From Candidatus Gastranaerophilales bacterium (GTDB lineage Bacteria; Cyanobacteriota; Vampirovibrionia; Gastranaerophilales; Gastranaerophilaceae): a DNA stretch of 37,044 nucleotides. The position numbers and the translations under genes are program-made. This document shows positions 1 through 34,321 of the stretch, one piece after another (position 1 is the first letter of the stretch; the number at the start of each line of letters is the position of its first letter). The DNA lies in the NCBI GenBank assembly GCA_944327225.1, contig CALVGZ010000019.1, positions 1-37,044 of the forward strand, given 5' to 3'. The notes below the pieces were generated by a model. That model had not been told where the DNA came from, searched no databases, and worked only from the letters and a program-made list of their open reading frames with translations.

Positions 1-138
1 CGTTGTTGAGGGTGACGTTCTGTCCATCTGAACATATTAATAAGTTTAAAAAGTGTCCACGAGAGGATTCGAACCTCTACATTCACGTTGTTGAGGGTGA
101 CGTTCTGTCCATCTGAACATATTAATAAGTTTAAAAAG
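1..138 (-). repeat. Tandem decayed tRNA-Arg copies (85-bp period)
   Basis: Positions 1-77 recur almost identically at 86-162, giving an 85-bp period that continues off the left edge. Read on the minus strand, each unit is a damaged copy of the intact tRNA-Arg at 139-212. The T arm, the 3' acceptor strand (54-61) and the D arm are kept. The 5' acceptor strand is replaced by AT-rich sequence (about 120-138), and the anticodon region carries a one-base insertion, with a one-base deletion beside the T stem. Without a 5' acceptor strand these copies should not make functional tRNA. The duplicated part is the tRNA 3' portion, which is what repeated integration and excision at a tRNA gene leaves behind; local slippage duplication is the alternative. 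Confidence 0.75.
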
Positions 139-212
139 TGTCCACGAGAGGATTCGAACCTCCGACATTCACCTTAGGAGGGTGACGTTCTGTCCATCTG
201 AACTACGTGGAC
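139..212 (-). tRNA. tRNA-Arg (anticodon CCT)
   Basis: The minus strand folds as a complete 74-nt cloverleaf. It has a 7-bp acceptor (GTCCACG/CGTGGAC), D stem GTTC/GAAC, anticodon stem TCACC/GGTGA enclosing loop CTCCTAA with anticodon CCT, and a T arm with TTCGAAT. The discriminator base is A and CCA is not encoded. It reads AGG codons. Its 3' end faces the decayed tandem copies at 1-138. Confidence 0.95.
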
Positions 213-524: not shown

Positions 525-998
525 ATGAGAATTTCACCCGTATCATTAAAGAATTACAGTTCAAGAAATGTTAGTTTTAAAAAATTTAAGAATGAAGAAA
601 CAGGAAAAAAAATAAAAGAGATGTTAGCTTCGGAGTATGGTTGGGACGATTTTTGTTGTTTTTCGAAGGGTTGGTATGAATATCTGAAAAAAAATCCTTA
701 TGCAGTTTTGCGAGCATTGGACGATGGTTCTGTAAAAGTTGATATAGATACTGAATTTTTCGAACAAGTTGGTGCAAAGGATATTAAAAATGATATCGAA
801 AGCATTAAAGATTATCGAGGAGCGGAAATTTCATCATTAGTAGTGATGCTTGAATGTTTGGATAGGCGTATTAAATCTAAAAATGATCCTAGAAAACCTC
901 TTGAAAACCAAAACAGAGAACTAAGCAAAGAGGAATTGGAAGCATATTGGGAAGCGAAAAGAGAAGACGAAGAAAGAATACGCAATCTTGCATTTTAG
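525..998 (+). CDS. Hypothetical protein with tag-like N-terminus (157 aa)
   Basis: I do not recognise this family. The reading frame is open from 378, but codons 1-49 of that longer version are a run of Phe/Ile/Leu/Lys typical of translated AT-rich spacer. I therefore place the start at ATG 525, giving MRISPVSLKNYSSRNVSFKK. The AGG just before it (521-523) is only a poor ribosome site. The start resembles the N-termini of other proteins here (1095, 4946), with a short polar stretch then an 'SFKKF' patch. The remainder is charged and soluble, with many Glu/Lys/Arg and a helical C-terminal third (about residues 120-157). No signal peptide or membrane segment is visible. It may be transcribed with the next gene, 96 nt downstream. 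Function unknown. Confidence 0.6.
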   Translation: MRISPVSLKNYSSRNVSFKKFKNEETGKKIKEMLASEYGWDDFCCFSKGWYEYLKKNPYAVLRALDDGSVKVDIDTEFFEQVGAKDIKNDIESIKDYRGAEISSLVVMLECLDRRIKSKNDPRKPLENQNRELSKEELEAYWEAKREDEERIRNLAF

Positions 999-1094
999 TT
1001 AATATTTGTTAAAAATTGTGTTTTTTAATGCAATTTATTTTTTTCAGGTGTATTAAAGAATTTGTTAGAATGTTATTTTTCGATACAAGTTCTT

Positions 1095-3098
1095 ATGAAT
1101 AGCCCTTCTTTAAATACTAACAATAACAGACTTAATTTTAAAGGCATGAAATTACCCGATTGTGCTGACCTTAGGGCTGCAAAAAGGTTTTTAAATTGCG
1201 GATATAAAAGTATTGAAAAAAAATTTATAGAATATATTCAAGAAGAAGCCCCAAAGTTAATTGCTGATGTAGATGGCGAAAAATATATTTTAGATGATAA
1301 AATAGGTGGAAAAATTTTAAGCGGGTTTAAATCTTTTATTGGGATTCCGCTTGATATAATTGATTTTTTTGCAAAAAAGTTTCCAAAATCTTTTATAAAT
1401 AATAGTAAATTTTTGGAAAAATATAGAAATTCTATTAAGTTTGAGGATAATTTAAAAGCGTTTCAGGGCATGCAAAGAAATGCCATAAGGTTTACTCAAG
1501 AGGTTTTACCTGAAAAAAATTATCCCACAGGAGAATGTACGGATTTTTGCAGGGGAGTTTGTAATAAAGTTAATGAAAAATTTAATAATTTATTAAATGT
1601 AGCAATGTCTGATGAAAAAGCGGTTTATGATACAAAAAAAGAAAGATTTTGGGCAAGAATAGTTTCGGGATTCACGGCCGCAGTTTTTATAGGAAATGAT
1701 TTTTACAATAAATCAATTCAGCAAGGAAAAACTGATAAAGAAGCAAAAAAAGAAAAAAAATTGAAATTGATTCAAGAAATTCACGAAAATATATGTGAAG
1801 CACTTGTGCAATTTAGTGTATTTGCTTGTTTTTCTCAAACTGTTAATAAAAGTATATGGGGATCTGCTTTAATAGGAACTGCAATAGGGCTGGTGTCTCG
1901 TACAGTTTCCAGAGTATCCAGCGGAATGCCAATTAAACGGATAAAGGTTTCGGATAAAAAAGATTTTTCAATGGAAATGAATGAGTATATTAAAGCTACA
2001 AAGGAAAATAATATAAAAGATTTAGAAAAAAGAAAGCAAGAAACAAAAAATAAAAATAATAAAAAGCCATTTTTAAGTCTTAAAAACATTCTTTTATTTT
2101 GCGGATTAAGCATTGCAGGCGGATATTTATTAAGATTTTTAAAAGGAAATACTGCAATTGGTAAAAATATTGTTAATAAATTAGCAGAATATAAAAACAA
2201 AATTAACGGTGAGGTAACTTATGAATTATATGCCGAAAAAAATGACCTAGAAAAAATGAAAAATTTATTAAATAGCAGTGGTCATTATTCTTTATATTCA
2301 AAAATTGACAATTTAACAGAAAAATCAGAAGGTACTCTTTTATTGGGTAGGGATTATAAAACAAGGAAAATTTTTGGTATAAAAGTAAAAGAAAAAGATT
2401 TAAGAAGTTTAAAATTTGCTCCTTTAAATTTTGTTAAAGAATTAATCTCTTATCCTTATAAAATAGTTTCCAAATTGGAAGCAGCTATAAGAAAGGTGCC
2501 ATTGAAAAATGTGGCAAGTGCAGGTGGTGATAGTGCTGTTTCAGATAAATACGGTATAAAAAATATTTATAAAATTTTTATGGAATTTAAAGAAAAATAT
2601 GGTAATGATGAAAAAAAGTTAAATAAAGAATTTGTTGAATGTATTGAAGAAACTTTTTTAAGGGCAAATAATAATGTCACTTCCTCATCATGTGATAATT
2701 CAAAAATTGCGGTTTTAGCCCAAACTTTAGGTGCATTATCCGGTATGTGGTTTAATATGAATGATGAATTTAATTCATCAATAAGAAACGGTGCTACAAA
2801 ATATGAAGCTCAAAAAGACGCAAGATTAAGGGGTATTAACAAATTCTTTAGAATGACGGTTCAGTTGATTATATCCGGCTCTTTAAATAATTTATTTAAA
2901 AAACAATACAATAAATCAATTGGTGCAGCAGCTATGGTTGTAGCAATAAGTACTATTTTAACAGATTCCGTTGCAAGAATTCTTACAGGTATGCCTTTTA
3001 GAAAAATGAATAAAGAAGAACTTGAAAAATATCAAAAAGAACATAAAGAAGGTATTATGTCAGGTTATTACAGATTTATCGATAAATTAGCTTCGTAA
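1095..3098 (+). CDS. Membrane protein with two copies of a ~100-aa domain (667 aa)
   Basis: No known family recognised. A TTG at 1062 extends the frame, but ATG 1095 gives a start (MNSPSLNTNNNRLNFKGMK) carrying the 'NFKG' tag seen in neighbours. Two internal segments are clearly homologous. Residues about 183-282 run from RFWARIVSG to SGMPIKRI; residues about 537-639 run from AVLAQTLGALSGMWF to TGMPFRKM. Each contains a hydrophobic helix, an N-D-x-(F/Y)-N-x-S-I element, a Lys/Glu-rich helix, two further hydrophobic stretches ending in K-S-I-(W/G)-(A/G)-(S/A)-A, and a closing (S/T)GMP(I/F)(K/R)K patch. A third hydrophobic segment lies near residue 335 (NILLFCGLSIAGGYLL). This suggests an inner-membrane protein built by duplication. 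Function unknown. Confidence 0.7.
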   Translation: MNSPSLNTNNNRLNFKGMKLPDCADLRAAKRFLNCGYKSIEKKFIEYIQEEAPKLIADVDGEKYILDDKIGGKILSGFKSFIGIPLDIIDFFAKKFPKSFINNSKFLEKYRNSIKFEDNLKAFQGMQRNAIRFTQEVLPEKNYPTGECTDFCRGVCNKVNEKFNNLLNVAMSDEKAVYDTKKERFWARIVSGFTAAVFIGNDFYNKSIQQGKTDKEAKKEKKLKLIQEIHENICEALVQFSVFACFSQTVNKSIWGSALIGTAIGLVSRTVSRVSSGMPIKRIKVSDKKDFSMEMNEYIKATKENNIKDLEKRKQETKNKNNKKPFLSLKNILLFCGLSIAGGYLLRFLKGNTAIGKNIVNKLAEYKNKINGEVTYELYAEKNDLEKMKNLLNSSGHYSLYSKIDNLTEKSEGTLLLGRDYKTRKIFGIKVKEKDLRSLKFAPLNFVKELISYPYKIVSKLEAAIRKVPLKNVASAGGDSAVSDKYGIKNIYKIFMEFKEKYGNDEKKLNKEFVECIEETFLRANNNVTSSSCDNSKIAVLAQTLGALSGMWFNMNDEFNSSIRNGATKYEAQKDARLRGINKFFRMTVQLIISGSLNNLFKKQYNKSIGAAAMVVAISTILTDSVARILTGMPFRKMNKEELEKYQKEHKEGIMSGYYRFIDKLAS

Positions 3099-3176
3099 TG
3101 TTAATTTAAAAATTCGTAAGACAAAAAATATTTTTTTGAGTTTTGTACATACAAAATTAATTAAGAAAGGAATTAA

Positions 3177-4147
3177 ACGAATATTCAAAGTGTTAATTTA
3201 GGCAAAATGGGTTTACAAAATTTTAAAGGTAAAATTATAGATTCCCATGGACATGTCGGGAAATGGACCAATGATTCTTTTTCTACAAGTGGTTTGTTGA
3301 ATTTTTTTAATAGAAGGTATAATGATGGCAGAGATACAGTTGATAGTGTAGTTTTATCAAATTTGGATTGCGTTTATGCACCGGAAGGAAAACCTTATAG
3401 AGATGAGATTGAGGGAAATCTTTCATTGATTAAAGAATGTTTGCATAATGACAAGCTTATTCCTCTTGTTGTTTGTCAGCCTGGATTTGGCTGCCCTACA
3501 AATATTGAATTATTATTAAATGCTTATCCGCATAAGATTAAAGGTCTTAAATTCCATCCTGCTTGCTTAAATTTGGCCGCAAATGATGAAAAATATGTTC
3601 CGTATATGGAGCTTGCTGAAAAATATAGAAAACCATGTTTATTTCATAGCGAAGTTGTTACAGATGAAGCAGGAAATTTCGTTAGAAGCGGGGTTTCTGA
3701 TCCTGAAAAGATTTATGAAATGGCAAGAAGATTTCCAAAATTCCGGTAATATTAGGACACATGGGACTGGGCGGAGATGAAGCTCATGAAGCCGGAATAA
3801 AAACTTTGATTGATTCAATTGAAAATGATGATGCAAATTTGTACGCTGACTTAGCTTGGGTGGATTGGGATAATCCGAAAAAACCCCATATTGTTGATGT
3901 GGTGGGCAAGCTTATGAATACATCCAGAGGTGACAAAACAGAAAGATTATTATTTGGAACAGATGCCCCTTTGGGTGTTTTTGGTGAAGCTGCTCTCAAA
4001 CAAGATGGTGCTTACGATTATAATATCAGATGTATAAAAGAAGCTTTAAAAGGTGAATATGGGGACGATGCACGTAAATTAATAAGCAGAATTTTTTATA
4101 GAAACAGTAAGAAATTGTTTGATGCTGGTTTGAATAAAATCGTATAA
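3177..4147 (+). pseudogene. Amidohydrolase (TIM-barrel metal-dependent hydrolase), frameshifted
   Basis: Two reading frames together make one amidohydrolase-2-type protein of about 320 aa. The first (ATG 3207 to stop 3749) has the metal-binding 'IIDSHGH' start, 'KGLKFHP' and 'CLFHSE'. The second carries 'PVILGHMGLGG', 'LYADLAWVDW' and 'LLFGTDAP', supplying the remaining His and Asp ligands. The second frame becomes readable at the AAAA run 3737-3740, so one missing A or a -1 slip there joins them. The start also looks damaged: a good Shine-Dalgarno (AAAGGA, 3166-3171) stands 5 nt before ACG 3177, and reading from that ACG gives (M/T)NIQSVNLGKMGLQNFKG, a tagged N-terminus like its neighbours. 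Probably a recently inactivated gene; two assembly errors are the alternative. Substrate unknown. Confidence 0.75.
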
Positions 4148-4236
4148 AAATTTAATTACATTTTTAATACTGTAAATTTATTATTTAAATTCATTTGCTA
4201 TATGCTATAAATTATATTAGGAATAGTTTATAGAAA

Positions 4237-4839
4237 ATGGTTTTTATGAAAAAGATAATATATTTTTTGGTATTTATTATTATGTCTCCTGTCTTTGCGG
4301 CAGATAAACTGCACGTTAGTGCTATGAACGATTTCAGTTCAATAAATCCTACTCAAAATTTTCAGGTGATGTTGGTTGAAGACGGAGTTTTAAACGGTAT
4401 TTATATGTTAAGGGGTGATATTTTAAATTGTACTTTAAACAAAACAACAAATCCGACACGTGCAAAAAGAGATGCAAAGATATATTTTAATGTAATAAGT
4501 TATTCGGATAAAAAAGGAACTCATCAGATAGAACCTAAAATGATTGCTAAATATGCCGAGAAAGTTTTGTCTGTTGAAGAAGTGAAAAAAACTCCTCCTA
4601 AAAAGATAGCTAAAAAAGCAGTTGGTACTGTCGGAAATTTATTTGTAACGGGATTTTCGTATGGGGTTTCATTTGTTGACGGTATAAAAGAAAATAAAGA
4701 AGATAACAGATTGAAATCCGGCGTAAAACAGGTTTATGATGATTCTTTTTTGTCTTATGCGGAATACGGGCATGAAGTCCAAATTAAAGAAGGACAAGAG
4801 TTTTATTTCATAGTTAAAAGAGCAAAAGAACAGGATTAA
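4237..4839 (+). CDS. Secreted/periplasmic hypothetical protein (200 aa)
   Basis: No family recognised. The N-terminus is a classical signal peptide: MVFMKKIIYFLVFIIMSPVFA, with likely cleavage after FAA/DK. The start could equally be the ATG at 4246, since neither has a strong ribosome site. The mature part contains a beta-rich first half (LHVSAMNDFSSI to KIYFNVISYSD). A Lys-rich linker (KKTPPKKIAKKAVG) follows, then a small hydrophobic patch (GNLFVTGFSYGVSFVDGI), and a C-terminal beta stretch ends in YFIVKRA. It lies between unrelated genes, with about 90 nt upstream and 106 nt downstream, and is probably transcribed alone. Envelope location is likely; role unknown. Confidence 0.7.
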   Translation: MVFMKKIIYFLVFIIMSPVFAADKLHVSAMNDFSSINPTQNFQVMLVEDGVLNGIYMLRGDILNCTLNKTTNPTRAKRDAKIYFNVISYSDKKGTHQIEPKMIAKYAEKVLSVEEVKKTPPKKIAKKAVGTVGNLFVTGFSYGVSFVDGIKENKEDNRLKSGVKQVYDDSFLSYAEYGHEVQIKEGQEFYFIVKRAKEQD

Positions 4840-4945
4840 TGTAACAAATTGTAAAAAAAATATTTTAAATGTTAAAGTTCACTTGAATATTTGACGATAT
4901 TCCTTATGTAGACAATAAAGACAATAGGAATAAGGAGCTTCGACA

Positions 4946-5323
4946 ATGGACATTAATCAGGTGAGATTTGGTGGTTTTTCGGTTGGCAATTCTAATACAA
5001 GGCAAGCTAAAGAGGAAAAATCTGAAGATAGCAAGGCGGAAGAATTTAGAAAGGAAAGCATTAGCACCTTTAATCCCGAAAAAATTATGGGTGCAATGGA
5101 AGCACAAGGATTGCAGAATTTGGCACAAGTTAATTTAGTGTCAAAGAAAGAAGTCGATCCTGCGGATTTTTTAACGGAAGATAGAATAGCAGACATTGAA
5201 GCCATGATGGGCGAATTTGAAATTGGAGTAGGCAAAATAGCAGATGTATTGGAAGAAGAATTGCCAATGTTATCAGCTGATAATAGACTTGCTTTTGCAG
5301 CTCATATATTTGCTGCTGAATAA
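4946..5323 (+). CDS. Tagged small acidic protein (125 aa)
   Basis: Unrecognised family. The start is well supported by AAGGAG (4933-4938) 7 nt before ATG. It begins MDINQVRFGGFSVGNSNTR, a short polar leader followed by 'RFGG', comparable to 'NFKG' in the 1095 gene and the broken amidohydrolase. Residues 20-40 are highly charged and probably disordered. Residues 45-125 are predicted helical and acidic (NPEKIMGAMEAQGLQNLAQ, then IADIEAMMGEFEIGVGKIADVLEEELP). No signal peptide or membrane segment. Single-gene unit closed by the terminator at 5371. Confidence 0.75.
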   Translation: MDINQVRFGGFSVGNSNTRQAKEEKSEDSKAEEFRKESISTFNPEKIMGAMEAQGLQNLAQVNLVSKKEVDPADFLTEDRIADIEAMMGEFEIGVGKIADVLEEELPMLSADNRLAFAAHIFAAE

Positions 5324-14695: not shown

Positions 14696-14878
14696 ATGAT
14701 TCAACCGCTTAAAGCAATCGCAGGCAGGACAATGGTTTCAAATCCCATTGCCTTAAATCCCCAAGGAGCTTATAAAAATTCTATGAATTATATGAGTAAA
14801 GGGGAAAAGCTAAATATCAACTGTAATGAAGTTCGTTCATTGACTAGAGATGGTTTAAAACTTGATATTTTAGCTTAA
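14696..14878 (+). CDS. Small hypothetical protein (60 aa)
   Basis: ATG 14696 has an excellent ribosome site (AGGGAGG, 14685-14691), so translation is likely despite the size; the in-frame extension to 14669 is not needed. It begins MIQPLKAIAGRTMVSNPIAL, a short polar/aliphatic leader similar in flavour to the tagged proteins at 525 and 4946, but without FKG. No membrane segment and no known domain. It is a self-contained unit: an extended -10 (TGT-TATACT, 14647-14655) precedes it and a perfect terminator follows immediately. Strong expression signals on such a small gene suggest an abundant product. Function unknown. Confidence 0.7.
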   Translation: MIQPLKAIAGRTMVSNPIALNPQGAYKNSMNYMSKGEKLNINCNEVRSLTRDGLKLDILA

Positions 14879-31179: not shown

Positions 31180-32256
31180 TTAAGCAAAAACTTTAAATGT
31201 TTTTTCTACGTTGTCGCTTATAACTTTTTCAACTGATTCCATTTCTGTTGCGATAGCGTTTTGTTCTGTGTCCAGTTGTTGCAATCTTAATTCAAGTTGC
31301 TGGTCTTCTTGTTGGATAATTTCAGTTTTAGCATTTATATCAGAAATTTTCTTTTCATATACTGTTTTTTCGTATTCATAGTCGTTATAAGCATCATCAT
31401 AAGCGTTTTGATCCATTTCTTGAACGGTTGAAAGAGAAAAAGTCATTCCTTTTAAATCATTAGGATAAGAATCATCGTCTGCTATTATAATCGAACTATA
31501 TCTTCCGGTGTCTGATTGTTCTAATGTTGCGGTTACTTGGGTAGTTACTTCTTTAAAATAAGTATAAGGATATAAGATGTTATACTTATCGATTTGAGGG
31601 TTATCAGAAGTCATGTCTAACAACTGTTCTTCTGTTAAAAAGTGATTTTTGCCTTGAGAATCTTGAAAGAAATAATATTGCACATCTTTTTCAGTACAAC
31701 ATTTATCGTATCCCGGAAGATTTTTATTAGCTTCTGCCTTATATATTTGATACTGATTGACTAAAAGCGAACCGTTTTCTCCCGTGTAAGCATTTGTTTC
31801 ATTTTCATTATATACAATCGAAGTCGTAACTTTGTTTCCTGTGTCAATAAGTGGTAATGTGTATGTATTGTAAGTTGTTCCGTCATCATTTTCTACTGTT
31901 TTTTTAATGATATTACCAAGGCTATATGAAGTATTTTTTGAATCCATATATTCTTGTTTGCTTGTTAAGCTTACTATATATTCATTTTCTTTGTTGTAGG
32001 TTTTTGTTAAATTGGAAATAACATAATCTTCTGAAGCATAGGAGCTTGAAGAATTTTCCAGAACATAGCTTGTTGAGTAGTAGTCTGATGTTGCAGGCGG
32101 AGTTGGAACCGTTAAATCCATCATTTCATTGTATAAATTAGCACTTTCATTTGAAAGAGCAGTTCTTTGCTGGTTAATTTGCTGACCTTGATATTCAACA
32201 TTGCTTTTTCTTGCTGTTAAACCCAGAAACCTTGCTTGACTGGCTGCCATACCCAT
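31180..32256 (-). CDS. Coiled-coil protein, possible flagellar-export substrate (358 aa)
   Basis: Not a named family. I place the start at the ATG read from 32256 (MGMAASQARFLGLTARKSN), because GGAGG lies 10 nt before it; an ATG at 32274 precedes that GGAGG. The N-terminal helix 'AASQARFLGLTARKSNVEYQGQQINQQRTALSNESANLYNEMM' and a C-terminal helical coil ('YEKKISDINAKTEIIQQEDQQLELRLQQLDTEQNAIATEMESVEKVISDNVEKTFKVFA') flank a Ser/Thr/Tyr/Asn-rich beta middle. There is no Sec signal. This helix-ended layout, with no signal peptide, is that of axial proteins exported by the flagellar apparatus. A sigma-28-like TAAA / CCCGTAAA pair upstream strengthens the idea. Other possibility: an unrelated surface protein. 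Confidence 0.65.
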   Translation of the reverse strand: MGMAASQARFLGLTARKSNVEYQGQQINQQRTALSNESANLYNEMMDLTVPTPPATSDYYSTSYVLENSSSSYASEDYVISNLTKTYNKENEYIVSLTSKQEYMDSKNTSYSLGNIIKKTVENDDGTTYNTYTLPLIDTGNKVTTSIVYNENETNAYTGENGSLLVNQYQIYKAEANKNLPGYDKCCTEKDVQYYFFQDSQGKNHFLTEEQLLDMTSDNPQIDKYNILYPYTYFKEVTTQVTATLEQSDTGRYSSIIIADDDSYPNDLKGMTFSLSTVQEMDQNAYDDAYNDYEYEKTVYEKKISDINAKTEIIQQEDQQLELRLQQLDTEQNAIATEMESVEKVISDNVEKTFKVFA

Positions 32257-32292
32257 AACTGTCATTGCCTCCATTGTTTGCTTACAATAGTG

Positions 32293-32393: not shown

Positions 32394-33149
32394 ATGACAC
32401 AAATTATTGGAAATATTCATTCATTGGAATCGTGCGGAACGGTTGACGGCCCCGGTATTCGTTTTGTCGTATTTATGCAAGGTTGTCCGATGCGTTGCTT
32501 ATATTGTCATAACCCTGACAGTTGGGATTTTAACGTTAATAAAAAAATGACAGCTGATGAGATATTAGAAAAGTATGACAGTGTTAAGGAATTTTTAAAA
32601 AACGGTGGTTTAACGGTTACAGGCGGAGAACCTTTGGCTCAAATAGATTTTGTAGTGGAACTATTTAAGAAAGCAAGAAAAAAAAATATACATACTGCTC
32701 TTGATACATCAGGTGTTACATTTAACAGAAGCGATACAAAAAAAATTGATGAACTTTTAAAGTATACAAGCCTTGTTATGCTTGATATTAAGCATATTGA
32801 TAATGTTCAGCATAATAAATTGACAGGTCATCCAAATGATCAAATACTTGACTTTGCCAGATATTTATCTGAAAAAAGAGTTCCTGTCTGGATTAGACAT
32901 GTTGTTGTGCCTTCAATTACTTATAATAAAATTTATCTGACAAGACTGGGTGAGTTTCTGGCAACCTTGAATAATATTGAGGCATTAGACGTTTTGCCAT
33001 ATCATGATATGGCAAAACCTAAATACGAAAGCTTAGGTAAAGAATATCCTTTGAAAGACATTCCTCCTTTGACTAAAGAAGAAGCAATGGATGCCAGAAA
33101 TATAATTTTAGATTCTATGAGAAATGCAAGAAAAACGCAGCATAACTAG
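32394..33149 (+). CDS. pflA: Pyruvate formate-lyase activating enzyme
   Basis: A 251-aa radical-SAM enzyme. The iron-sulfur motif is 'GCPMRCLYCHNPDSWD' (Cys31, Cys35, Cys38; C-x3-C-x2-C), preceded by 'GTVDGPGIRFVVFMQ', the PflA hallmark. 'LTVTGGEPLAQ', 'LDTSGV', 'VMLDIKHID', and 'PVWIRHVVVPS' follow in order. It abstracts hydrogen from the radical glycine of PFL, here carried on the separate 80-aa protein. It has its own promoter and AGGAAAAG ribosome site, 9 kb from pflB. Its TAG stop overlaps the flhB stop on the opposite strand (CTAG), with no terminator between. Confidence 0.94.
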   Translation: MTQIIGNIHSLESCGTVDGPGIRFVVFMQGCPMRCLYCHNPDSWDFNVNKKMTADEILEKYDSVKEFLKNGGLTVTGGEPLAQIDFVVELFKKARKKNIHTALDTSGVTFNRSDTKKIDELLKYTSLVMLDIKHIDNVQHNKLTGHPNDQILDFARYLSEKRVPVWIRHVVVPSITYNKIYLTRLGEFLATLNNIEALDVLPYHDMAKPKYESLGKEYPLKDIPPLTKEEAMDARNIILDSMRNARKTQHN

Positions 33150-34321
33150 TTTTCTTCTTTTTTAAATTTTTTGAGTGACTCTTCTTTTTTCTTTTGAATT
33201 TCTTTTTGTGTTTGAATGTCGCCTCTTTCTTCTGCTGTTTTTTCGATTATTTCTTGTTGGTGAGTTGTTGTTCTTTTGAGTTTGTATACAAAAATGAGAA
33301 TTTCTGCTATCGCCTTATATAAATCCGGCGGAATTTGTCTGTTTATTTCTACAAGTCTAAATAAAGCCCTTGCAACAGGCGGATTTTCGATAATTGGAAT
33401 ATTATGTTCACGAGCAATTTCTTTTATTTTATGTGCAAAAAGTTCCGTACCTTTTGCAACAAGCATGGGTGATTCCATTTTTTCGGCATCATATTTGATA
33501 GCACAGGCTATATGGGTCGGATTGGTAACAACAAAATCACAGGTAGTGACGGCATCCATCATTTTTTGTTGTAAAAGTTGTTGTCTTCTTTGTCTTAGAG
33601 CTGCTTTTACATTTGGGTCACCTTCAGAGTTTTTGTATTCATCTTTAACTTCTTTAAAAGACATTTTTTGGTCTTGTAAAAATTTCCATTTAGTCACGCC
33701 ATAGTCTGCTGCTGCTATTATTAAAAAAGCTATTCCTGCTTTTATAATGAAGTCCATCATTAGGGAGCCGAATTGAATCATAATTGCAAAATGATTGTCA
33801 ATAGCGGCAAGCATCAGTATATCTTCAAAGTGTTCTTTGTATACCATGTAGCCTATAATCCCTAAAACTATAACTTTTGCTATATTTTTGAATAAATCGA
33901 ATAAAGTTTTAGGACTCATTAAGTTTTTAAAATATTTTGCCGGATTAAATTTTTCAGCATTAAATTCCATAGGCTTTGTTGTAAAAAGAGGTCCTATTTG
34001 AATTAGGTCTCCTAAAATTCCCATTATGGAAGCAAGCACCAGAATCGGTAAAAGTATAAGGGCTGTTGGAACGACTGTTTTGGTAAATAGATAAGCGTAA
34101 CCTATTTCATCAAGGTGTTTGTTTGGAATTTGTTCATATATTATTGTAAATAATGCTGTTAACTGTCCCCAAATTAGTGGAGAGAGTAAATAAATAGCAC
34201 TAAACATAACTATTATAGCAAGAGCTGTAGATAAATCTTTTGATTTTACGACTTGTCCTTGTTCTCTTGCTTTTCTTAGTTTTTGCTGGCTTGCTTCAAA
34301 TTGTTTATTCTCGTCGCCCAT
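33146..34321 (-). CDS. flhB: Flagellar export switch protein FlhB
   Basis: A 391-aa protein with the FlhB N-terminus 'QFEASQQKLRKAREQGQVVKSKDLSTA' and four membrane segments (about 33-60, 84-112, 148-163, 180-206). A cytoplasmic linker follows ('DQKMSFKEVKDEYKNSEGDPNVKAALRQRRQQLLQQKM'). The self-cleaving 'NPTH' is at 267-270, and 'VARALFRLVEINRQIPPDLYKAIAEILIFVYKL' follows. The C-terminal 40 residues are Lys/Glu-rich. FlhB sits in the flagellar type III export gate and changes specificity from rod/hook to filament subunits after cleavage. Its neighbours are not flagellar; it begins 4 nt after the stop of the HerA-like/Tudor gene and is cotranscribed with it. Confidence 0.95.
   Translation of the reverse strand: MGDENKQFEASQQKLRKAREQGQVVKSKDLSTALAIIVMFSAIYLLSPLIWGQLTALFTIIYEQIPNKHLDEIGYAYLFTKTVVPTALILLPILVLASIMGILGDLIQIGPLFTTKPMEFNAEKFNPAKYFKNLMSPKTLFDLFKNIAKVIVLGIIGYMVYKEHFEDILMLAAIDNHFAIMIQFGSLMMDFIIKAGIAFLIIAAADYGVTKWKFLQDQKMSFKEVKDEYKNSEGDPNVKAALRQRRQQLLQQKMMDAVTTCDFVVTNPTHIACAIKYDAEKMESPMLVAKGTELFAHKIKEIAREHNIPIIENPPVARALFRLVEINRQIPPDLYKAIAEILIFVYKLKRTTTHQQEIIEKTAEERGDIQTQKEIQKKKEESLKKFKKEEN

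What the first reader, a model, noticed from the sequence alone, without database searches (positions are those of the whole stretch)
525..5323. Recurrent short N-terminal tag (polar leader plus NFKG/RFGG) on unrelated proteins
Proteins with different bodies begin alike: MRISPVSLKNYSSRNVSFKK (525), MNSPSLNTNNNRLNFKGMK (1095), (T)NIQSVNLGKMGLQNFKGK (3177, before an amidohydrolase barrel) and MDINQVRFGGFSVG (4946). The leader is 8-18 residues, rich in Asn/Ser/Gln with I/V at alternate positions, ending in aromatic-Lys/Gly-Gly. It is not a Sec signal. On an enzyme such as an amidohydrolase, which needs no such extension, it looks like a targeting or export address, possibly for a type III-like (flagellar) apparatus or a compartment. 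This may be the most novel system here.
Basis: partly seen in the sequence, partly recalled or inferred. Interest (0 to 1): 0.65.

Follow-up and report, generated by a model that had tools for sequence, protein, structure and literature searches.

The report
N-terminal address tag in gut Gastranaerophilales
Some 2% of proteins in gut bacteria of the order Gastranaerophilales, including four neighbouring genes here, begin with the same kind of floppy tail ending in Phe-x-Gly, which looks like an address label whose destination is still unknown.

Summary
Window genes 525, 1095 and 4946 begin with a polar Asn/Ser/Gln/Ile leader closed by (N/S/R)-F-(K/G)-(G/K). The amidohydrolase at 3177-4147 carries the same tag, but here it is a broken gene (ACG in place of the start codon, plus a frameshift). 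The genome is a Candidatus Gastranaerophilales. Across the order the tag occurs on unrelated proteins: N-termini hit the narrow motif 23 times in 1945 genes against about 7 expected (P about 1e-6). The scored motif gives 3.6-4.5-fold excess; I estimate some 35-50 tagged proteins per genome. Orthologues keep F-x-G while the rest of the leader changes almost freely, and a structure model of one tagged enzyme leaves the tag disordered outside the fold. It was not found in 247 genes of the sister order. It is modular: untagged paralogues exist, and FolE2 is tagged in one lineage only. So 'an address on unrelated bodies' is supported. The destination is not. Leader composition resembles a type III signal, and every genome tested keeps a flagellum-derived export core; but single-copy housekeeping enzymes and membrane proteins are tagged too, which favours a docking tag read in the cytosol. 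No description was found in the literature searched.

The parts
525..998 (+). Protein of 157 aa, no Pfam family; tag = residues 1-20 (525-584), degenerate end F-K-K
   Evidence: tag score 12.4
1095..3098 (+). 667-aa, probably multi-pass membrane protein found in 129 of 146 genomes of the order; tag = residues 1-17 (1095-1145), MNSPSLNTNNNRLNFKG
   Evidence: orthologues in and near the genus keep F-x-(G/A/R) with different leaders
3177..4147 (+). Amidohydrolase of the Amidohydro_2 type, tag at 3177-3233; start codon is ACG and the frame breaks near 3740-3750: probably a pseudogene of a family that is intact and tagged in other genera
4946..5323 (+). 125-aa protein without known domain, tag = residues 1-10 MDINQVRFGG (4946-4975); orthologues in 21 of 21 genomes of the genus
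33146..34321 (-). FlhB/YscU-family export protein, part of the flagellum-derived export core found in all genomes tested; candidate machinery only, no link to the tag shown
   Evidence: Bac_export_2, E 1e-112

Best explanation
The tag is an order-specific docking or sorting signal: an uncleaved, disordered N-terminal tail (about 8-45 residues, usually starting M-[K/R/Q]-[I/V]) whose only strict part is a short F-x-G motif just before the folded body. It most likely acts inside the cell: a receptor common to Gastranaerophilales binds the motif in the cytosol and brings otherwise unrelated soluble enzymes and membrane-anchored proteins to one place or partner (a scaffold, membrane patch or quality-control machine). 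Shown here: it is real, above chance, conserved, modular, outside the fold in the one enzyme modelled, and confined to the order among the groups sampled. Inferred: that it is a binding site and is not cleaved. Guess: that the receptor sits in the cytosol. No receptor was identified.
For: Enrichment at N-termini only. Leaders share 36% identity (shuffled leaders 26%) between amidohydrolases whose barrels are 78% identical, yet the F is present in nearly all tagged members and the G in most. AlphaFold: residues 1-11 pLDDT below 50, barrel above 90. Modularity: untagged 272-aa paralogues starting at the barrel; FolE2 untagged in other genera. Read in the cytosol: the only FolE2 copy of one genus is tagged; AAA ATPase, NTP transferase, DHH and HAD enzymes are tagged; amidohydrolases with a C-terminal membrane anchor more often have the more positive flank on the tag side (14 of 23 against 6 of 23).
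Against: Leader composition (D+E 3.5-8% against 11% at other N-termini; N+S+Q+T+P 41-47% against 26%) fits type III signals better than generic disordered tails. A tagged 5'-nucleotidase of a normally exported family has no Sec signal. Weak clustering near export genes. FolE2 itself may be one of the roughly 25% of hits expected by chance. No receptor, compartment or scaffold has been identified.
Confidence: 0.45

Rival explanations
1. Export signal: the tag is an uncleaved type III-like signal read by the flagellum-derived export apparatus (FliOPQR, FlhA, FlhB) that Gastranaerophilales keep even without a flagellum, and tagged proteins are its secreted or injected substrates.
For: Composition as reported for type III signals (PMC2669295). 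Export core in all genomes tested, including flagellin-less ones. None of the curated tagged set has an N-terminal hydrophobic segment, against 17% of other genes, although the score itself disfavours such segments. Tagged genes sit inside operons half as often (16% against 32%). Most have no Pfam family. Weak proximity to export genes (odds ratio 2.6-5 within 5 kb, P 0.004-0.13, post hoc).
Against: Sister order with the same core lacks the tag. Sole FolE2 and nucleotide-dependent cytosolic enzymes tagged. Ordinary-hydrophobicity and multi-pass membrane proteins tagged. Type III signals have no strict F-x-G. The protein family encoded near FlhB (31180-32274) has a different N-terminus.
Confidence: 0.27
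2. Export by another, unrecognised non-Sec route specific to the order.
For: Order-specific occurrence and no Sec signal.
Against: No candidate machinery was found or looked for systematically; the arguments against export apply here too.
Confidence: 0.08
3. Several unrelated features lumped together: polar low-complexity starts common in AT-rich genomes, with F-x-G as a chance or fold-related motif in each family.
For: Absolute excess is only about 2% of genes; 20-30% of high scorers are expected by chance; a loose regex shows no excess; glucose-6-phosphate isomerase looks like a native N-terminus.
Against: Narrow motif P 9e-7, frame test, F conserved within a region predicted disordered, absence in the sister order (broad regex P 0.002; narrow P 0.06), acidic residues depleted relative to ordinary hydrophilic segments.
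Confidence: 0.1
4. A translation or turnover device: the leader tunes initiation or serves as an N-terminal degron, not an address.
For: N-terminal position; rapidly changing leader.
Against: The conserved unit is a peptide at variable distance from the start (leader lengths 9 to 43).
Confidence: 0.1

Closest known systems
Type III secretion signals (effectors and flagellar substrates)
   Same: N-terminal, disordered, rich in Ser/Pro/polar residues, poor in Leu and acidic residues
   Different: Here a strict F-x-G core and taxonomic restriction; cargo includes housekeeping enzymes and membrane proteins; no secretion data
Cargo-loading peptides of encapsulins and encapsulation peptides of bacterial microcompartments (from general knowledge)
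   Same: Short peptide at a protein end brings unrelated enzymes to one place
   Different: Tens of scattered, mostly single-gene cargos per genome; no shell gene was searched for; the motif does not look like either known peptide
Sec/Tat signal peptides and lipoprotein signals
   Same: N-terminal address on unrelated proteins
   Different: No hydrophobic core, no twin arginine, no lipobox cysteine

Membership tests
Type III secretion signal | Polar, Ser-rich N-terminus depleted in Leu and acidic residues | tested here: met
   against PMC2669295
Type III secretion signal | Disordered, outside the folded body | tested here: met
   one family only
Type III secretion signal | A type III export core in the same genomes | tested here: met
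   FHIPEP in 146 of 146 genomes of the order, FliP in 19 of 19 tested genomes of the order
Type III secretion signal | Occurrence follows the machinery across lineages | tested here: not met
   Sister order has the core, 0 tags in 247 genes
Type III secretion signal | Genes close to the machinery | tested here: inconclusive
   P 0.004-0.13, post hoc
Type III secretion signal | Secretion that depends on the signal and the machine | not testable with these tools
   needs a cultured strain or a heterologous assay
Sec signal peptide | Hydrophobic core in the first 30 residues | tested here: not met
   0 of 61 curated tagged proteins, though the score disfavours hydrophobic starts; the four window tags also lack one
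Encapsulin or microcompartment cargo peptide | Shell protein genes in the genome | not tested
   no shell-family search was run
Amidohydrolase superfamily (body of 3177-4147) | Metal-binding HxH...H...H...D on a TIM barrel | tested here: met
   invariant D17, H19, H21, H150, H192, D260 in the family; ACMSD-like fold matches; the window copy itself is broken

The most novel reading that the evidence does not exclude
Gastranaerophilales use a flagellum without a filament as a general protein exporter, with its own F-x-G entry tag, sending some 35-50 otherwise cytosolic-looking proteins per genome out of the cell or into gut neighbours or host cells.
Probability: 0.22. Interest if true: 0.87.

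Novelty: new variant of a known kind. Interest (0 to 1): 0.6.

Why it matters
Sorting tags are how cells decide where a protein works. A tag shared by tens of unrelated proteins across a whole order of common gut bacteria would mark a set of proteins, most of unknown function, as one system, and would give a handle on how these rarely cultured bacteria organise their cell or act on their surroundings. It can be tested with one reporter fusion and one pull-down. It also bears on whether the widely kept 'incomplete flagella' of these bacteria are working machines, not leftovers.

Tried and rejected
A loose regex for the motif and simple F-x-G counts (pattern B) show little N-terminal excess; the signal appears only with the narrower context. 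F-x-x-x-hydrophobic, the flagellar gate motif (from memory), fits the amidohydrolases but not the other tags (judged by eye). Glucose-6-phosphate isomerase (L110, L180) was set aside: its FTG/FSG probably belongs to its native N-terminus. Transmembrane segments of tagged proteins are not unusual in hydrophobicity. Pfam, NCBIfam and PHROGs found no family for the unknown bodies in the window. Literature searches on Gastranaerophilales/Melainabacteria/Vampirovibrionia with N-terminal, signal peptide, secretion, tag, motif or FlhA gave no description of the tag. The whole genome was not available as a file, so stretches were sampled (roughly a quarter to a third of three genomes, less of others).

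Full report
The observation. Three are open genes. The fourth, the amidohydrolase, has ACG at 3177-3179 behind a good ribosome-binding site, where intact orthologues have ATG, and a frameshift near 3740-3750 splits it into 3207-3749 and 3761-4147. None of seven other genomes of the genus in the first sample has the gene. It is probably a decaying copy, although two assembly errors cannot be excluded.

The organism. Relatives found in named records are Candidatus Gastranaerophilales or uncultured Melainabacteria. The window lies in a 1.73-Mb, 29-contig genome.

More than chance. I sampled genome stretches from nine genomes of the order and used a simple gene finder of my own. A loose pattern gave no excess, so the claim rests on narrower tests. 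In residues 2-24 the narrow motif occurs in 23 of 1945 genes, against 0.35% per equal internal window, P 9e-7. A scoring matrix built partly from the amidohydrolase family, tested with that family and the seeds left out, gives 3.6-4.5-fold excess over internal windows starting at Met for thresholds 5-10. By genome, 12 genes against 2.7 expected (window's genome), 21 against 4.3 (G031) and 14 against 3.6 (G101), from which I estimate about 35-50 tagged proteins per genome. In a phylum-wide DNA scan the listed in-order matches are in frame and open in 22 of 32 cases, with leaders such as MKIQSIHANTNFK and MQVSKITLTNFK, against 6 of 36 in a sample from other cyanobacteria. In the sister order no hit was seen in 247 genes (broad pattern P 0.002, narrow P 0.06). 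The tag is therefore at least strongly concentrated in this order.

Conservation. Amidohydrolase orthologues with 70-95% identical barrels share only 36% of the leader (26% if shuffled), with leaders of 9 to 43 residues, while F and nearly always G stand just before the first barrel strand. The comparison was restricted to members with F-x-G, so the conservation of F-x-G rests, where a few members read FKP, FKS, FMS or FTA. The 667-aa family keeps F-x-(G/A/R) with quite different leaders in and near the genus. The 125-aa protein at 4946 has orthologues in all 21 genomes of the genus, 20 of which align from residue 1-4.

Structure. The model of a tagged amidohydrolase (39 sequences) has residues 1-11 below pLDDT 50 and the barrel above 90. 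A conserved motif in a disordered tail is the signature of a short binding motif; this is inference, shown for one family. The body resembles ACMSD-type amidohydrolases and keeps the metal ligands.

Modularity. The amidohydrolases come in three forms: tag plus barrel (about 324 aa), tag plus barrel plus C-terminal membrane segment (about 365-390 aa), and an untagged 272-aa form that starts at the barrel. GTP cyclohydrolase FolE2 starts at its domain in other genera but has MKSPNKNINFGG in front in G101; all nine genomes of that genus tested have a single FolE2, with a slightly longer open frame than most others. Other tagged bodies are a HAD phosphatase, DHH phosphoesterase, nucleotidyl transferase, 5'-nucleotidase, AAA ATPase and many proteins without a Pfam family.

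Where does it lead? For type III export: the leaders are poor in acidic residues, Leu and Ala and rich in Ser, Asn, Gln, Pro, matching the published type III signal (PMC2669295). FlhA-family genes are in 146 of 146 genomes of the order and FliP in all tested, including ten genomes of the order without flagellin. In one such genome FliO, FliP, FliQ, FliR, FliE, FliF and FliH are present. Published work noted such partial flagellar sets and read them as loss (PMC4040986, PMC3787301). Tagged genes lie somewhat nearer to export genes, a post hoc test whose P depends on thresholds. Against export: the sister order has the core and no tag, the sole FolE2 is tagged, several cargos need cytosolic nucleotides, and about a quarter of tagged proteins have ordinary membrane segments, most often with the more positive flank on the tag side. 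I therefore put docking inside the cell first (0.45) and type III export second (0.27). No receptor was identified, and neither route is shown.

Limits. Gene starts come from my own finder; 20-30% of high-scoring hits outside the conserved families are expected to be chance. Sampling covers about a quarter to a third of three genomes. The literature search covers only open-licence PubMed Central text.

Noticed in passing
window 33146-34321; L091:16414-19190; L154:13010-18944: Genomes of the order keep a flagellum-derived export core (FliOPQR, FlhA, FlhB, FliE, FliF, FliH) even without flagellin; the sister order also has FlhA and FliP without flagellin. It looks like a maintained machine, not a remnant.
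   Followed up: partly
L099:13538-15019 (G013); G000:C8:42573-43613: A separate protein of about 500 aa carries only the FlhA C-terminal (substrate-docking) domain; found in most genomes listed.
   Followed up: no
window 31180-32274 (-): Member of a family starting MGMAASQAR.LGLTARK, with several copies in G031, encoded next to export genes; no Pfam family. Possible substrate of the export core.
   Followed up: no
window 1-212: The left end holds repeated partial copies of the tRNA-Arg region beside an intact tRNA-Arg (138-212); assembly edge or integration remnant.
   Followed up: no
window 14696-14878 (+): A 60-aa protein begins MIQPLK, like a tagged protein at L017:11171 (MIQPLKYGTNIAFKG), but lacks the F-x-G.
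   Followed up: no
L114:18276-19775 (-) and G031:C1:359965-361773 (+): A tagged AAA ATPase and a divergently transcribed tagged 602-aa protein (leader of about 33 residues before FTG) are neighbours; a possible functional pair.
   Followed up: no
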